Part shown: piece by piece, positions 27,453 to 42,309 of the stretch
How positions within the stretch are numbered: position 1 is the first letter of the stretch
How the letters are laid out: every line of letters starts with the position of its first letter
Origin: a virus
Strand: one strand, 5' to 3'
DNA length: 51,350 nucleotides
IMG/VR virus record: IMGVR_UViG_3300024308_000033
Span: 1-51,350 of that record
Translations under genes and position numbers: made by a program
Notes under the pieces: model-generated
Seen by the model: the letters and a program-made list of their open reading frames with translations, nothing else
Databases searched by the model: none
Told to the model about the DNA's origin: nothing

Positions 27453-27540
27453 GCGCCTGCTTTTCGTGCGCACCGACGCTTTCCTGCGTCGGGAGGGCGG
27501 CAGCTATACAACACCCGCAAGGGGAAAACTGCCCGCCGGA

Positions 27541-27633
27541 CTGTTGACCGGTTTCTACCCTCCCGACACCCTCGGTGCGTCGCGTAGAAACGTCTCGCCG
27601 AGGTTTCCAATCTCGTCAACAGGAGACGTCTCC
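27541..27633 (+). promoter_or_regulatory. C4 target and structured leader of the downstream gene
   Basis: CTGTTGAC (27541-27548) and TTTCTAC (27552-27558) can pair with the C4 RNA. They can also pair, nested, with GTAGAAA (27584-27590) and GTCAACAG (27615-27622) in the same leader. The last of these overlaps the ribosome-binding site AGGAGA (27621-27626) of the gene at 27634. The C4 pairing and the internal fold exclude each other. The stretch from 27453 to 27540 is translatable in the frame of the downstream gene and encodes SYTTPARGKLPAG, which I associate with Ash/Icd-like peptides of such loci. Confidence 0.55.
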
Positions 27634-35744: not shown

Positions 35745-35745
35745 A

Positions 35746-35792
35746 TGGTGGGCCCACCAGGATTCGAACCTGAAACCAAGGGATTATGAGGC
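35746..35792 (-). other. Att core at the junction of prophages 1 and 2
   Basis: This is a second copy of the tRNA(CAU) 3' half, differing from 443-489 by one base (CCTGA for CCTGG), which leaves a T-arm G-U pair. Again the bases to the right do not form a tRNA 5' half. A single integration would have left a complete tRNA here. The junction is therefore attR of prophage 1 and, at the same time, the left att of prophage 2. Confidence 0.8.
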
Positions 35793-35928
35793 CTCTATAG
35801 GTCTTCCATGCGCTTCCACAGGCATCCCGGCTTTAAGCTAAGTCTTTGATTTTCTCAGGTTGTGCGACCACCTGCGCCCATCATCGTCCACCTCTTTCCA
35901 CGGACAAACGGTCACCGAGCGGTCACCA

Positions 35929-37278
35929 ATGGGCGCATCAAAGGGAATGCTTACAACGAAGGGACTGGCCGCACTGCCGGTCGGCGAATGGGCCTCAGAT
36001 CCGGCGCCGCGCGGCGCGGGCTGCCTGGACGTCCGCAAGCTGGCCGGCGGGCAGCTGCGGTTCTACTACAGGTACACGAAGTCCAACGGCCAGCGCGACC
36101 GCCTGCTGATCGGCACCGGCCTGGCGCTGACCACAGCACGCGATGCGGCGGCGGGCTTGTCCCGGCGGTATCAGGCCGGCGATCGGGATTTGCGGGACGC
36201 GATCGCGGCCGAGGCAGCGGCGATGGACCGTGCGAAAGCCGAGGCCCTGGCCGAATCGACGCGGCGATCAGGCGCCACGTTGGGCGCTCTGATGACAGCC
36301 TATGCCCAAAGCTTGGAGGACGCCGGCAAGGTCTCTGCCGCTGCGACGCGCGCTTCCATCACGCGCCACATCGAGGATCCGTGGCCAGACCTCTGGGCGC
36401 GCCCGGCATCCGAGCTTGAGCTGGATGACCTGCTTCCGATCCTGTCGCGGCTTGTGCGCGCCAAGAAGCTCCGCGAAGGCGGCAAGATCCGGTCATACCT
36501 GCGTGCAGCGTATGCGGCGGCGATCGCAGCCAAGCAGGACGCGGCCGCCCCCGACGCTCTGCGCGTGCTCAACGTATCCAGAAACCCGGCGCGCGACTTG
36601 GCCACGCTCGACAGCGGTCAGCCGCGCGACCGGGTTCTTTCGGTGGCCGAGCTTCGTGCCTACTGGCGCAGGATCGAGAACCTGCCGGGACGACAGGGCG
36701 CCCTGCTGCGCTTCCACCTGCTGACCGGCGGGCAGCGCATTGCACAGCTGATGCGGCTGAAGTGGTCAGATCACGATCACGACACGGACACCGGTACCGG
36801 ATCCGTCCGCTTGCTCGACATCAAGGGGCGTCGTCGCGTGCCCCGTGTGCACCTGGTGCCGCTGCTCCCGGTGATGGCTGCGGATCTCGCCGTCCTGCGT
36901 GGCGATGATGACAGTGACGGCGGCGGCGCCAGACCGCACCTGTTCTCGCTCACCGCCGGTAAGGCGCCTGCCACCTATGACGAGTTCCGGGGAATCATGG
37001 ATCCGGTGGTGGCCAGCATGGTGGCCGCCGGCGAGCTGACAGCGCCGTTCACACCGGGCGACCTACGACGCACGGTGGAGACTCGGCTCGCTGCGCTGGG
37101 GCTATCGGAAGAAGTCCGTGGCCACCTGCAATCCCACGGCCTGAGCGGCGTCCAGAAGCGGCATTACAACTTCTTCGAGTACGACGCGGAGAAACGCGCT
37201 GCGGTGGAGGCCCTGTACGAACTGCTTTCCGGCGCCGGTGCGACGGTGGTGCCGATGCGCAAGGGCCTGAGCCGCTAG
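35929..37278 (+). CDS. int: Tyrosine integrase of prophage 2
   Basis: About 449 residues from ATG 35929; ATG 35947 (MLTTKGLAALPVGEW) is the other candidate, and the frame is open to 35860. The N-terminal part resembles the DUF4102-type arm-binding domain (YYRYTKSNGQRDRLLIGTGL). The catalytic Arg is in TGGQRIAQLMRLKW, the second Arg in GDLRRTVETRL (where relatives usually have HDLRRT), His in LQSHGLSG, and the likely nucleophile Tyr413 in KRHYNFF. It reads away from the att core. Two CGGTCACC repeats (35909-35927) abut the start codon. Confidence 0.9.
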   Translation: MGASKGMLTTKGLAALPVGEWASDPAPRGAGCLDVRKLAGGQLRFYYRYTKSNGQRDRLLIGTGLALTTARDAAAGLSRRYQAGDRDLRDAIAAEAAAMDRAKAEALAESTRRSGATLGALMTAYAQSLEDAGKVSAAATRASITRHIEDPWPDLWARPASELELDDLLPILSRLVRAKKLREGGKIRSYLRAAYAAAIAAKQDAAAPDALRVLNVSRNPARDLATLDSGQPRDRVLSVAELRAYWRRIENLPGRQGALLRFHLLTGGQRIAQLMRLKWSDHDHDTDTGTGSVRLLDIKGRRRVPRVHLVPLLPVMAADLAVLRGDDDSDGGGARPHLFSLTAGKAPATYDEFRGIMDPVVASMVAAGELTAPFTPGDLRRTVETRLAALGLSEEVRGHLQSHGLSGVQKRHYNFFEYDAEKRAAVEALYELLSGAGATVVPMRKGLSR

Positions 37279-37612: not shown

Positions 37613-37662
37613 ACATGCGCCCCGTCTCGACCCGTGAGACATGCCGCTACCAGAGTACGCCC

Positions 37663-38145
37663 ATGCAGTCCCTTCCCTACTCACACACGCTGGCCCGCCC
37701 CATCGGCCCGGCCATGATCGATGGCCCGGCGCAGTTCGTGCCCCTTGCCGCAGCGCGCGCGCGGCTTGGCTTCCCTTCGCCGGCCGACGACTTCATGGAC
37801 GATGCGATCGACCTGCATCGCCTGCTGGTGCGCAATCCCGCCGCCACATTCCTGTACCGCGCCGATGGCTGGTCCATGAGCGGCGCCGGCGTCAGCGACG
37901 GGGACATCCTGGTGGTCGACCGGTCCGTAACCCCCCAGGCCGGGGACCTGGTCATTGCCATCTGGGACGGGAACCAGCCCACCTGCAAGGTGCTTCAGCT
38001 CTTTGAAAGCCACATGGAGCTGCACTCGGCCAATCCGGACTTCCCCCCCATCGTGCTGGAGCAATCCACCGAAGTGGAAGTGTTCGCTGTCGTTGGAGTC
38101 GTCCGCCAGATCAAACGCCGGAGCGGTCGTGTTCGGGCTCGTTGA
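37663..38145 (+). CDS. umuD: UmuD-like S24 peptidase, polymerase V subunit
   Basis: A 160-residue protein from ATG 37663. RLGFPSPADDFMDDAIDLHR holds the self-cleavage site; the bond before Gly36 is preceded by Leu35, where E. coli UmuD has Cys. The catalytic Ser71 is in DGWSMSGAG and Lys109 in TCKVLQL. Cleaved UmuD' forms DNA polymerase V with UmuC for translesion synthesis. Earlier in-frame ATG at 37615 would add 16 residues not seen in the family. Its end overlaps umuC by 17 bases. Confidence 0.92.
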   Translation: MQSLPYSHTLARPIGPAMIDGPAQFVPLAAARARLGFPSPADDFMDDAIDLHRLLVRNPAATFLYRADGWSMSGAGVSDGDILVVDRSVTPQAGDLVIAIWDGNQPTCKVLQLFESHMELHSANPDFPPIVLEQSTEVEVFAVVGVVRQIKRRSGRVRAR

Positions 38146-39379
38146 CGGCAACAACTTCTACGCCAGCTGCGAGCGCGTGTTCCAGCCGGGCCTTCGCGGC
38201 GTTCCGCTGGTGGTGCTGAGCAACAACGACGGCTGCGCGATCGCGCGCTCGGCCGAGGCCAAGGCGCTCGGCATCAAGATGGGCCAGCCCGCTCACGAAC
38301 TGAAGCACCTAGTGCGCCGGCATGGCCTCCAGATGCGCTCGGCCAACTTCGGGCTCTATGGAGACATGAGCGCCCGGGTCGTGAGCGTTCTACGGGAGGC
38401 CGCGCCGCGGGTCGAGGTCTACAGCATCGATGAGAGCTTCATCGACCTGGACGGAATTCGGGATCGCGAGCGGTTCGCGCGGGATCTGCGCCAACGTGTG
38501 CACCGGTGGACCGGCATACCGAATTGCATCGGCATTGGCCCCACGAAGACTCTGGCCAAGTTGGCCAACAAGGTGGCCAAGGGTGCTGACGGCGTGATCG
38601 ACCTCGGCAATGCGTCCTACCGGGACACAGTGCTGCGGACATTCACGGTCGGTGATCTATGGGGCGTCGGGCGCCGGCTGGCACCGCGGTTGGAATCCAT
38701 GGGCATCAGCACCGCGGCAGCATTACGCGACGCTCCGGCGGACGACATCCTGGCCACCTTCGGGGTCACATTGGCACGCACCCAGCGCGAGCTTCAGGGA
38801 CACGCGTGCATGGAGCTGGAGGAAGTCGAGCCGGATCGGCAGCAGATCATGGTGAGCCGATCCTTCGCGGACCGGGTGGAAGACCATGATGCGGTGGCTC
38901 AGGCGCTGGCTACCTTTGCCATCAGGGCCTGCGAGAAGCTCCGCGCGCGCGGCTTGGTTGCCGCTGGCGTCTGGGTGTTCGCGCAGTCCGACGTGTTTCG
39001 GCCAGAGCTCCGGCAGCACAACGCCAGCAGGACCGTGGGCCTGCCCGCGTCGACGGCAGACACCACGGTGGTGCTGGCCGTCGTGCGCAAGATGCTCCGC
39101 GGCCTGCTCCGCGACGGGATCGGATACAAGAAGGCAGGCGTGGCGCTGCTCGACCTAGCCCGGCCGGATGAGCTGCAGGCGGATCTCTTCGGGCCGACGG
39201 TGGTCGGCAATGACACGCTGATGGCCACCATGGACCGCATCAATCAGAAGTTCGGGCGCGGCACGGCCGGCCTTGGCGCATCAGGCTGGCAGGCACGGCC
39301 AGCCTGGGGAATGCGGCAGCACATGCTCTCGCCCAACTACACCACTTCCATCGATGAGATACCACAAGTTCGCTGCTGA
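38129..39379 (+). CDS. umuC: UmuC-like Y-family DNA polymerase
   Basis: A 416-residue translesion polymerase. I chose GTG 38129 because GGAG lies six bases upstream and the protein then starts at the conserved FGLVDGNNFYASCERVF. The catalytic acidic site SIDESFIDLDG lies near residues 96-106. The helix-hairpin-helix region follows (TKTLAKLANKVAK, VGDLWGVGRRLAPRLESMGI). The C-terminal little-finger domain is complete. A prophage-borne umuDC raises mutagenesis and survival after damage. Confidence 0.93.
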   Translation: MFGLVDGNNFYASCERVFQPGLRGVPLVVLSNNDGCAIARSAEAKALGIKMGQPAHELKHLVRRHGLQMRSANFGLYGDMSARVVSVLREAAPRVEVYSIDESFIDLDGIRDRERFARDLRQRVHRWTGIPNCIGIGPTKTLAKLANKVAKGADGVIDLGNASYRDTVLRTFTVGDLWGVGRRLAPRLESMGISTAAALRDAPADDILATFGVTLARTQRELQGHACMELEEVEPDRQQIMVSRSFADRVEDHDAVAQALATFAIRACEKLRARGLVAAGVWVFAQSDVFRPELRQHNASRTVGLPASTADTTVVLAVVRKMLRGLLRDGIGYKKAGVALLDLARPDELQADLFGPTVVGNDTLMATMDRINQKFGRGTAGLGASGWQARPAWGMRQHMLSPNYTTSIDEIPQVRC

Positions 39380-39425: not shown

Positions 39426-40106
39426 TCAGCCTTGCGCCCGCTTCGCTGCAGGATCGAGAAGACGACGAACCTCTTCGGGGGATAGCACAGGAAATTCGGG
39501 CGCAGGCCAAACCGTTTTCGCCAAGAAGATACCCACTACGCTTTTCACATTGGGAAGGCCGATCAGGAGCCGCTTTGCGGCTGCGAAAGAAGCCCCCATC
39601 GTGATTACGTCGTCAACCACAATGATGTTCTGGGCCAAGGGCGGGCTCAGGAACTTGGGGTCCACAGCCAAAGTCTCACAGAGCTCATCTGGCGTAAGGC
39701 GGTGACCATGATGCTGCGCGTCCCGCTCTACGGTCTGAACCAATAGTGGCCTGATATCTACCTTCGGCGCGCCCACAGCCATGCGCTTAAGCACCCTGAG
39801 CATTCGATCGTCAAACTCGGCGTGTCCTGCCGGCTTGGATCCAGGCATTGGCACAAAGGTGTGCGAACCAATGGTTTTACTAAGGTCGATGACGCTTTCT
39901 AGCGCTCGACCCCAATACTCAATCGCCTGCTTCTTGTAGTAGAGCTGACCCTCACTCACGGTCGGCTTCTTCTTCAAGTTCAGAATTTGCTGATTGGTGT
40001 CACTGGCTTGGTAGCCGCCTTCACTTGTGTATTCCCCATAGTGAAAGCACTGGTCGCCAGTTTCTAAGTAAGTGTAGTTCTTCGGTTCAAGGGTCTGCAG
40101 GCGCAT
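39426..40106 (-). CDS. Phosphoribosyltransferase-like protein, ShosT-like
   Basis: A 226-residue protein with a type I phosphoribosyltransferase PRPP loop, NIIVVDDVITMGASFAAAKR, in the C-terminal half. It resembles ComF-type proteins but lacks their cysteine finger. The previous gene is DprA-like and overlaps it by 20 bases. A phosphoribosyltransferase with a DprA homologue is the make-up of the ShosTA anti-phage system, in which ShosT is toxic and ShosA restrains it. Base composition is visibly lower in GC than the flanking phage genes, a sign of recent transfer. The family match is from domain pairing, not a search. Confidence 0.7.
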   Translation of the reverse strand: MRLQTLEPKNYTYLETGDQCFHYGEYTSEGGYQASDTNQQILNLKKKPTVSEGQLYYKKQAIEYWGRALESVIDLSKTIGSHTFVPMPGSKPAGHAEFDDRMLRVLKRMAVGAPKVDIRPLLVQTVERDAQHHGHRLTPDELCETLAVDPKFLSPPLAQNIIVVDDVITMGASFAAAKRLLIGLPNVKSVVGIFLAKTVWPAPEFPVLSPEEVRRLLDPAAKRAQG

Positions 40107-41025
40107 AACTACCCAGAGCTTCCATGATCTCGGTCACATTACGAACGCGGATGGCGCCTTGCGCCTCATATTTCTTGGGCCAGCTCAAATCTTCTCGTCG
40201 GAAACAGTTGTCCAAAATGAATAGCTTCCTTCCTTGGGCGAGGGCAGCTCTCGCTTGGACCAGAGTTCCAGAGGTGTTCCCAGCCTCGACGATGATGGTT
40301 GCCTCCGTCAGAGCAGACATTGTCACGTTACGTGCAGGGAAGAACAGGCTGTTCGCCTTGTAGTGTTGCTGCTTGTAGCGCAAGAAAGGCACCTGCGATA
40401 TCACCAAGTGATCTTTGGCCAAACTCTCTTGCAGAGCGGCGTTCTCGCGCGGGTAGTAGTCAAAGAGCGGTGTCCCAATGACAGCGATGGTTCGGCCACC
40501 TGCCTCCAGCGCCCCGGCGTGGGCGGCGGAGTCAATACCACGTGCCAGACCTGAAACCACCGTGAAACCGTGCTTCACTAACGCGATAGCGATGCGACGA
40601 GCATTGGCCGCTCCCTCCGGAGAGGGATTGCGCGTGCCGACGACGGCGACGCCACGCGTATCGACCAGCTCCCAATCTCCTCTGTAATAGAGAAGCTCAA
40701 TCGGGTGATCTGCCTCTCGGAGCTTGGCCGGGTACTCACCGGCGCCATGGACGCGGACCCCGACCTCCTTCAGACGATCAGCTCCAACCTCCTCGAGGAG
40801 CCGCTTCCACGTGTCCCGCACTTCCAGTTTGGACACCAACTCTGACGGCACCCGGCCAGGGTTTTCGGCGAACAGTTGCGCAATGTTCTTGAACCAAGCA
40901 CCTTGCCCCAGCCACAACGACTCATAAGCCGCCATCTCGCGACGGAGCTCGATCGGTGGAGCCGAAAAAATTGAATAGTCAGAGACTTGGTTCATCTCAG
41001 GCTGCTGTGAGCACTCTACAAGCAT
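40087..41025 (-). CDS. DprA-like Rossmann-fold protein, ShosA-like
   Basis: A 312-residue protein. ATG 41025 has GAGG five bases upstream; an in-frame TTG at 41040 is less likely. The DprA/Smf core is clear: RGVAVVGTRNPSPEGAANAR, VVSGLARGIDSAAHAGALEA, and GRTIAVIGTPLFDYYPRENA. True DprA loads RecA on incoming single-stranded DNA in transformation; this copy sits in a prophage and is coupled to a phosphoribosyltransferase, so a defence role (ShosA-like antitoxin) is more likely. Low GC, like its partner. Confidence 0.75.
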   Translation of the reverse strand: MLVECSQQPEMNQVSDYSIFSAPPIELRREMAAYESLWLGQGAWFKNIAQLFAENPGRVPSELVSKLEVRDTWKRLLEEVGADRLKEVGVRVHGAGEYPAKLREADHPIELLYYRGDWELVDTRGVAVVGTRNPSPEGAANARRIAIALVKHGFTVVSGLARGIDSAAHAGALEAGGRTIAVIGTPLFDYYPRENAALQESLAKDHLVISQVPFLRYKQQHYKANSLFFPARNVTMSALTEATIIVEAGNTSGTLVQARAALAQGRKLFILDNCFRREDLSWPKKYEAQGAIRVRNVTEIMEALGSYAPADP

Positions 41026-41328
41026 AGATTCCTCACCCAAACGTCCAGTGTGCAGGGGGAACGACGGGCCCAGTACGGCCGGCCTGATATGTTACCCCTT
41101 CTGCGTCGATGTCACCTGAAGGGCTCAATGCAGGCGGAAGGCCGTCATAGCCAGATATGACACGAACACCGTTGGCGGGCAAGGCGCTGCCGGTAGAGGC
41201 GCCGGCGTGGCGCTGCTCACGCGCCCCCGGGTTGAGCTGCCTGCGGCCCCGGATCCGGCAAGGTCAGGATGCCTTTTCGGGCAGGTCTCCGCTATCGGGC
41301 AAACACCCACTGACGTTCGGGGTTCTCC
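41026..41328. other. Intergenic region upstream of the DprA-like gene
   Basis: About 300 bases with no gene I can support. It must hold the promoter of the leftward DprA-like/phosphoribosyltransferase pair and the end of the upstream transcript, but I see no strong -35/-10 pair and no clear terminator. The composition changes within it, from AT-richer near 41026-41160 to GC-rich toward 41300, marking the edge of the transferred pair. Confidence 0.4.
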
Positions 41329-42261
41329 CTATGCGGCCAGCTTGTGCTCGTAGAACGGGTGTCGCTTGTCGTCAAAGATCCGATAGAGCGTGGCCAGGTC
41401 GCCCGGATCCGGGTTGAGCCAGGCATCCACATGCTCGGGTTTGATGTTGATGATGGTCCGGTCGTGGCCGGCGGCGGCCACCTCGGGCTCCGGGTCGTCG
41501 GTGATGGCGGCGAACGACAGCAGATCCGGCTCCTTGCCGGCCGGATCCTTCCAGTGCGACCACAGGCACGCTACCAGCATGGGCTCGCCAGTGCGCGGCG
41601 TGAACTGCACCACCTGGTTCTTCCCGTCCGGCCCCTCGACGTTTTCATAGAACGTGTCCACCACCATCAGCCCGTGGGTGTGGCCAAAGGCCGGTGCCCA
41701 GAACTTCTCCAGGCTGTCGCGACGGGCGTTGTAGGTACCGGGGAAGCGTTGGTCATAGTTGGCCGGCTTTCCAGCCAGGCGGCACTGGTAGCGCATCGGC
41801 TTGATGACCAGCTTCCCGCCCTCGGAGACGATCACCGGGGCATATACGCCTGGGAAGATACGGCTATCGCGGTCCTTCGGCTCGGTGCGCTTCAGGTCGG
41901 CCAGCTTGGCCAGGGCCCGCTCGATCTTATTGCCGGCGATCCGAACATCTTCCCGGGCCTTCTTGGTTTCCTTCACCTGCAACGCGCGCTCGGCGTCGGC
42001 CAAGCGCTTGCGGTTGGCAAACAGCTCCTGCTCCAGTACCGCGGCCTCGGCTCGGTTCCACTGCTCCACCTCAGCCCACACCGCCAGCTCCGCCGGGCTC
42101 GCGCCGGCCCGGAAGGCGTCGTCCATCGCCTTCGGGGTCTTGGGCCGCTTCTTGCCCGGGTCGTGGGCGTAGAGAGCGGCGAACTCCTGCAGCGACAGCG
42201 TGGCGCCGGTCATCCGGACCAGCTTCTGATAGGCGGCGGTGATCTGGGCGGAATAGCACAT
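41329..42261 (-). CDS. SOS response-associated (HMCES/YedK-type) protein with an inserted helical region
   Basis: A 310-residue protein. The start is fixed by the catalytic Cys2: MCYSAQ at ATG 42261; the frame opens ten codons earlier. The family residues follow: YNARRDSLE (the NAR motif), HGLMVVDTFYENVE (catalytic Glu) and GHDRTIINIKPEH (His). HMCES proteins form a covalent link to abasic sites in single-stranded DNA and shield them. The usual length is near 220 residues; here about 90 extra, mostly charged helical residues are inserted after the N terminus (about 55-125). No ribosome-binding site is clear. Confidence 0.85.
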   Translation of the reverse strand: MCYSAQITAAYQKLVRMTGATLSLQEFAALYAHDPGKKRPKTPKAMDDAFRAGASPAELAVWAEVEQWNRAEAAVLEQELFANRKRLADAERALQVKETKKAREDVRIAGNKIERALAKLADLKRTEPKDRDSRIFPGVYAPVIVSEGGKLVIKPMRYQCRLAGKPANYDQRFPGTYNARRDSLEKFWAPAFGHTHGLMVVDTFYENVEGPDGKNQVVQFTPRTGEPMLVACLWSHWKDPAGKEPDLLSFAAITDDPEPEVAAAGHDRTIINIKPEHVDAWLNPDPGDLATLYRIFDDKRHPFYEHKLAA

Positions 42262-42309
42262 GGGCGCAATCTGACACGCCCCGACGTTCATTCGTCGTGA
42301 CGCTGCGGC

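What the first reader, a model, noticed from the sequence alone, without database searches (positions are those of the whole stretch)
39426..41025. ShosTA-like defence pair in prophage cargo
A phosphoribosyltransferase and a DprA homologue overlap by 20 bases in an accessory slot between the SOS genes and the tail genes of prophage 2. That domain pair is the make-up of ShosTA. The DNA is less GC-rich than its surroundings. Gene order is DprA-like first. If so, the lysogen may be protected from competing phages, perhaps including relatives of prophage 1.
Basis: partly seen in the sequence, partly recalled or inferred. Interest (0 to 1): 0.7.

Follow-up and report, generated by a model that had tools for sequence, protein, structure and literature searches.

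The report
Compact ShosTA defence pair in prophage
Two overlapping genes in a bacterial virus resident in a host chromosome (a prophage) look like a known toxin-antitoxin pair that protects bacteria from other viruses, but in a shorter form whose toxin lacks a domain present in the one version studied in the laboratory.

Summary
A 226-aa phosphoribosyltransferase (39426-40106, minus) and a 312-aa DprA-like protein (40087-41025, minus) overlap by 20 bp, DprA-like gene first, in DNA of 56.5% GC within a 64.5% GC record. PADLOC profiles name them ShosT (2.5e-42) and ShosA (6.4e-96). The DprA-like protein misses the cut-off for ordinary DprA, as do the ShosA relatives scored alongside it, and it groups with ShosA homologues, apart from housekeeping DprA. 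ComF is excluded by sequence score. 126 of 130 ShosT relatives have ShosA directly upstream. The pair fills a cargo slot between an SRAP gene and umuDC near the integrase end of the second prophage; related prophages carry other cargo there, including a RES-Xre toxin-antitoxin pair. One correction: the solved, characterised ShosT (E. coli APEC O1 / phage P2_4C9) is 424 aa, with a HAD-like N-terminal half and a phosphoribosyltransferase C-terminal half. The window toxin aligns only to the latter half, so the published dual activity cannot simply be carried over. New member of a known kind; modest interest.

The parts
40087..41025 (-). shosA: DprA/SMF-like putative antitoxin and sensor, 312 aa (alternative TTG start at 41040)
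   Evidence: PADLOC ShosA PDLC03961 6.4e-96; Pfam DNA_processg_A 4.5e-57; below the TIGR00732 dprA cut-off; groups with compact ShosA homologues
39426..40106 (-). shosT: compact phosphoribosyltransferase putative toxin, 226 aa; PRPP loop VVDDVITMGAS at residues 163-173 intact
   Evidence: PADLOC ShosT PDLC03962 2.5e-42; AF2 model pLDDT 95.8 matches the PRTase half of ShosT 8zvc, Z 12.8, rmsd 3.3 over 175 residues
40087..40106 (-). 20-bp overlap of the two reading frames (shosA 3' end over shosT 5' end)
   Evidence: overlap seen in nearly all relatives
41198..41328 (.). intergenic stretch between the SRAP stop and the cargo; shared backbone ends at 41198-41201 in many relatives; contains the 72-bp match to Stenotrophomonas phage S1 (41202-41273)
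41329..42291 (-). SRAP (SOS-response-associated peptidase) gene, one border of the cargo slot
   Evidence: Pfam SRAP 2.4e-19; 133 viral relatives
38130..39379 (+). umuC-like DNA polymerase gene, other border of the slot, convergent with shosT (start approximate)
   Evidence: PHROG 1268 1.1e-132; present in the 12 full slots compared, window included
37615..38145 (+). umuD-like gene
   Evidence: PHROG 811 2.4e-36
35860..37278 (+). integrase of prophage 2, marking its end
   Evidence: PHROG 1 6.5e-22; conserved beside umuDC in relatives

Best explanation
The pair is a compact-type ShosTA toxin-antitoxin module carried as lysogenic cargo by the second prophage. ShosT is a stand-alone type I phosphoribosyltransferase-fold toxin that probably binds PRPP and disturbs the nucleotide pool, leading to DNA damage and growth arrest (inferred). 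ShosA, a DprA-like protein with a conserved DNA-binding arginine, holds ShosT in check or repairs its damage in the uninfected lysogen; infection by another phage upsets this balance and stops growth before phage release (inferred from the E. coli ShosTA and RqlHI systems). Shown here: family membership, intact conserved residues, overlapping operon, and position in a variable cargo slot. Inferred: toxicity, neutralisation, defence, trigger and substrate.
For: ShosT and ShosA profiles. Ordinary DprA and ComF models below cut-off. Eight housekeeping DprAs from genomes of ShosTA carriers all pass the dprA cut-off (210-273 bits), while the ShosA hits score 164-175, the range of the window protein. 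In the tree the compact ShosA set is one side of a branch with 100/100 support. 126 of 130 ShosT relatives have ShosA directly upstream. No position at least 80% conserved in 71 ShosT relatives departs in the window; D165, D166 and G171 of the PRPP loop are invariant. AF2 models are confident: ShosT 95.8, ShosA 88.9 mean pLDDT; the ShosA model matches DprA 3uqz (Z 29.9) and ShosA 8zva (Z 28.0). The arginine equivalent to pneumococcal R115, involved in ssDNA binding (PMC4066776), is invariant as R132. Slot with variable cargo. A DprA-PRTase pair from a P2-like prophage protects against T7 and lambda (PMC9122126). [quoted passage not shown] ShosT is reported to alter purine pools, with ShosA binding DNA (review PMC12593503).
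Against: No activity was tested. The characterised ShosT has a HAD-like N-terminal half absent here, and direct sequence similarity outside the PRPP loop is not detectable, so the published biochemistry may not apply. The ShosT model matches H. pylori ComF (Z 13.2) as well as ShosT (Z 12.8), so the fold alone does not separate them. In the tree the compact ShosA clade does not join the long ShosA clade, although long branches make this unsure. No promoter-like site was found.
Confidence: 0.75

Rival explanations
1. The pair is a toxin-antitoxin module kept mainly for prophage or cargo stability (addiction), with phage defence minor or absent.
For: Slot neighbours in relatives include a RES-Xre toxin-antitoxin pair and phage S1 carries a RES gene next to its SRAP gene. 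Compact ShosTA also lies on plasmids of Rhizobium, Sphingobium and E. coli.
Against: A prophage is already stably inherited; a related DprA-PRTase pair in a prophage hotspot has shown anti-phage activity (PMC9122126).
Confidence: 0.15
2. It is a recombination or DNA-processing pair that helps the phage (DprA loading RecA, with a ComF-like partner), not a defence module.
For: DprA fold with conserved DNA-binding arginine R132; ComF is the top structural match of the PRTase, tied with ShosT; neighbours are SOS genes.
Against: Sequence scores exclude transformation DprA and ComF. Position 267, which is D or E in pneumococcal and most housekeeping DprA (pneumococcal D243 is part of the acidic RecA-binding patch), is an invariant lysine in the compact ShosA family. 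No ComF-type sequence match beyond the PRPP loop.
Confidence: 0.07
3. The pair is a decayed or inactive remnant.
For: AT-richer DNA and an outlying codon composition.
Against: Both frames intact, all strongly conserved ShosT residues kept, start codon with a good ribosome-binding site, and purifying selection on ShosA against near relatives: dN 0.04-0.12 with dS above 1.
Confidence: 0.03

Closest known systems
ShosTA of E. coli APEC O1 / phage P2_4C9 (long type; PADLOC PDLC03012 and PDLC02997; PDB 8zvb-8zvd, 9w2p, 9w2q, 8zva, 9vzo)
   Same: DprA-like gene first, PRTase gene second; carried by a temperate phage; ShosA fold alike (Z 28.0 to 8zva); ShosT PRTase half alike (Z 12.8 to 8zvc residues 166-364)
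   Different: Long ShosT is 424 aa with a weak HAD-like match in its N-terminal part; the window ShosT is 226 aa and lacks it. Genes abut rather than overlap in P2_4C9. No significant pairwise similarity between the two ShosT proteins.
Compact ShosTA homologues in Pseudomonas phage Riah and Burkholderia phage Mana
   Same: Similar sizes, same order and overlap; 67%/54% and 52%/33% identity for ShosA/ShosT
   Different: Different phage backbones; Riah carries the pair next to its integrase at the genome end. No experimental test of them was found here.
PsyrTA / RqlHI
   Same: DprA-like antitoxin with a toxic PRTase domain (PMC4670107); weaker PsyrA match of the window ShosA, 1.7e-28
   Different: The toxin is a RecQ-like helicase fused to a PRTase; the window toxin has no helicase part.
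Transformation DprA and ComF
   Same: Fold of each protein
   Different: Both curated models below cut-off; separate branch in the tree for DprA

Membership tests
ShosTA (PADLOC definition, both subtypes) | Toxin matches a ShosT profile | tested here: met
   PDLC03962 2.5e-42
ShosTA (PADLOC definition, both subtypes) | Antitoxin matches a ShosA profile better than ordinary DprA | tested here: met
   PDLC03961 6.4e-96, 319 bits; TIGR00732 167.8 against cut-off 191.15
ShosTA (PADLOC definition, both subtypes) | Two genes adjacent in one operon, conserved as a pair | tested here: met
   20-bp overlap; 126 of 130 relatives paired; 3 of the 4 without a partner have ShosT at a contig end
ShosTA (PADLOC definition, both subtypes) | PRPP-binding loop of the PRTase intact | tested here: met
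   D165, D166, G171 invariant in 71 sequences
ShosTA (PADLOC definition, both subtypes) | ShosT toxic alone, ShosA neutralises it, pair protects from phage | not testable with these tools
   bench work needed
Long-type ShosTA (the biochemically characterised form) | ShosT with HAD-like N-terminal half plus PRTase | tested here: not met
   226 aa against 424 aa; the model aligns to 8zvc 166-364; weak Pfam Hydrolase match only in the long form
Housekeeping or transformation DprA | Passes TIGR00732 cut-off | tested here: not met
   167.8 against 191.15 bits
ComF | Passes TIGR00201 cut-off | tested here: not met
   18.4 against 233.55 bits; fold similar
PsyrTA / RqlHI | Toxin has a RecQ-like helicase domain | tested here: not met
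   226-aa toxin, no Pfam match at all; PRTase fold spans residues 1-200

The most novel reading that the evidence does not exclude
Compact ShosTA is a separate lineage of DprA-PRTase toxin-antitoxin pairs that works without the HAD-like half of the characterised ShosT, so its toxic chemistry (and perhaps its trigger) differs from the published ShosTA mechanism, although databases give both the same name.
Probability: 0.4. Interest if true: 0.5.

Novelty: new member of a known kind. Interest (0 to 1): 0.35.

Why it matters
It adds a well-supported, intact member of the compact ShosTA type in a prophage of the Stenotrophomonas group, and shows that the slot between SRAP and umuC is a site of exchangeable cargo in this prophage family, a place to look for further defence genes. 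It also gives a clear test: whether a bare PRTase paired with a DprA-like protein is enough for ShosTA-type toxicity and defence.

Tried and rejected
Exact-peptide scans with the window ShosT alone found no relatives in viral or genome contigs; an alignment of eight members was needed. Pfam gives no match for the window ShosT. I considered that the RecA-binding patch of DprA is charge-reversed in ShosA. At the position of pneumococcal E235 this fails, because an arginine there is ordinary in housekeeping DprA too; only the D243 position (K267) differs. I considered whether 41026 is a physical genome end, since three contigs end there. They end exactly at the base before the ShosA start codon, which fits gene-boundary trimming of proviruses better (inference). 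A genus-wide ShosT profile search gave weak hits in nearly all Stenotrophomonas genomes from the PRPP loop alone; only 3 of 91 are convincing, one of them probably the long type. Pu et al. 2025, the main ShosTA mechanism paper, is not held and was read only through a review. Whether the original Shewanella shosTA is compact or long could not be settled.

Full report
What is there. On the minus strand two reading frames overlap by 20 bp: a 312-aa DprA-like protein (40087-41025) followed by a 226-aa protein (39426-40106). The DprA gene starts at an ATG with GAGGAA just upstream. The 1600-bp stretch has 56.5% GC in a 64.5% GC record, which only 0.2% of same-size windows reach, and its third-position GC is 63-64% against 82-87% in the neighbouring genes. 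The window is an IMG/VR virus record of 51350 bases, so the host flanks are not seen.

Identity. PADLOC gives ShosT (PDLC03962) at 2.5e-42 and ShosA (PDLC03961) at 6.4e-96. NCBIfam dprA scores 167.8 bits against a cut-off of 191.15, and comF 18.4 against 233.55. In nine genomes that carry compact ShosTA, the eight full housekeeping DprAs found all pass the dprA cut-off, at 210-273 bits, whereas the ShosA proteins score 164-175, the range of the window protein. A tree of 34 sequences puts the window protein inside the compact ShosA set, which is separated from housekeeping DprA with 100/100 support; long branches make the place of the long ShosA unsure.

The pair as a unit. An alignment of eight members reached 50 viral and 80 bacterial loci. 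In 126 of these 130 loci a ShosA gene lies directly upstream of ShosT, nearly always overlapping by the longest-ORF rule; in three of the four exceptions ShosT sits at a contig end. The same order holds in Pseudomonas phage Riah, Burkholderia phage Mana and plasmids of Rhizobium, Sinorhizobium, Sphingobium and E. coli. No position that is at least 80% conserved in 71 ShosT sequences departs in the window; the aspartates and glycine of the PRPP loop are invariant.

Structure. AlphaFold2 with these alignments gives confident models: ShosT mean pLDDT 95.8, ShosA 88.9. ShosA matches pneumococcal DprA (3uqz, Z 29.9, 258 residues, rmsd 3.1) and E. coli ShosA (8zva, Z 28.0, 262 residues, rmsd 3.2). 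ShosT matches H. pylori ComF (7p0h, Z 13.2, 161 residues, rmsd 3.2) and ShosT (8zvc, Z 12.8, 175 residues, rmsd 3.3), a tie, well above the ordinary phosphoribosyltransferases at 7 to 8.6. The fold says type I phosphoribosyltransferase; the sequence profile says ShosT.

A distinction the name hides. The solved ShosTA proteins match the phage P2_4C9 pair at full length with E-values near 1e-220 and 1e-294, and P2_4C9 is the long type: ShosT of 424 aa, best PADLOC model PDLC03012. That protein has a weak HAD-like match in its N-terminal third and the phosphoribosyltransferase match near its C-terminal end. The window ShosT aligns only to residues 166-364 of it, has no significant pairwise similarity to it, and its family profile finds only the PRPP loop there. 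PADLOC links both forms through one model, PDLC03962. The ShosA proteins are clearly related (33% identity over 177 residues). A Sinorhizobium plasmid carries one pair of each type side by side. The published dual activity of ShosT (phosphoribosyltransferase and pyrophosphatase; review PMC12593503) therefore cannot be assumed for the window protein. That the HAD-like half supplies the pyrophosphatase is my inference, not a tested fact.

Position. The pair lies between an SRAP gene (41329-42291) and convergent umuDC genes, next to the integrase of the second prophage. Eighty viral relatives found through SRAP show a common layout. In eleven of them both borders of the slot are present; with the window this makes twelve full slots. 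Nine hold genes of one KilAC-like family, one holds a DUF6932 gene with a partner, one a RES-Xre toxin-antitoxin pair, and the window ShosTA. Slot GC is 53-58% in all twelve. One further prophage (L010/L174) has ShosTA at the same place after SRAP, with ShosA 95% and ShosT 73% identical; another (L023) has a much more divergent ShosTA between SRAP and an integrase. In Pseudomonas relatives L064 and L068, and in viral contig L018, ShosTA also lies near convergent umuDC genes of a different kind. Shared backbone on the SRAP side ends near 41198-41201 in many relatives, and the last 72 bp recur in Stenotrophomonas phage S1 next to a RES gene.

How it probably works. A DprA-phosphoribosyltransferase pair from a P2-like prophage protects E. 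coli from T7 and lambda (PMC9122126). The phosphoribosyltransferase domain of RqlH is genotoxic without its DprA-like partner RqlI, and PRPP-pocket mutants largely lose this (PMC4670107). This supports the view that a phosphoribosyltransferase without a HAD domain can be the toxic part. I infer that ShosT uses PRPP to disturb nucleotide pools and that ShosA restrains it or repairs its effects, with infection upsetting the balance. The arginine involved in ssDNA binding in pneumococcal DprA is invariant here (R132), while the position of D243, part of the acidic RecA-binding patch, is an invariant lysine (K267). This hints that ShosA kept DNA binding but not that RecA contact; the cited paper itself warns that the acidic residues shift during evolution.

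Verdict. What remains open is function: toxicity, neutralisation, protection and any effect on relatives of prophage 1. It is a new member of a known kind, with the compact build as the point worth testing.

Noticed in passing
window 35745-35790: The junction of the two prophages holds a stretch that reads, on the minus strand, like the 3' half of a tRNA-Met(CAT) gene (judged by eye; ARAGORN finds no whole tRNA). Homology with relatives L149 and L189 begins exactly at 35746, so this is probably the shared attachment core of prophages in tandem; L151 is homologous through the junction.
   Followed up: partly
window 27488-27575, plus strand: Rfam match to sRNA-Xcc1 (RF02221, 77.7 bits) inside the P2-like prophage 1.
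   Followed up: no
window 39426-41025 and L010, L060, L061: ShosT changes much faster than ShosA: 69/72/59% against 94/93/85% amino-acid identity in three near relatives, with about three to six times the nonsynonymous change.
   Followed up: partly
window 41202-41273; L009 6001-6072: 72 bp at 96% identity to Stenotrophomonas phage S1 in a non-coding stretch beside different cargo; the backbone match ends at its edge in many relatives.
   Followed up: partly
L182 9113-10587; L142 7177-8663; L165: A DUF6932 gene with an overlapping ~300-aa partner of unknown function, in the same slot; weak match to PADLOC candidate PDC-M63.
   Followed up: partly
L178 9628-11705: A GmrSD-like gene followed by a HEPN-type gene after the SRAP gene of a related prophage, a possible further defence cargo.
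   Followed up: no
L156 8001-11257: A second copy of the SRAP 3' end lies about 2.3 kb beyond the first, a sign of recombination at this slot.
   Followed up: no
L005 4076-7868: Sinorhizobium plasmid with a compact and a long ShosTA pair next to each other in convergent orientation.
   Followed up: partly
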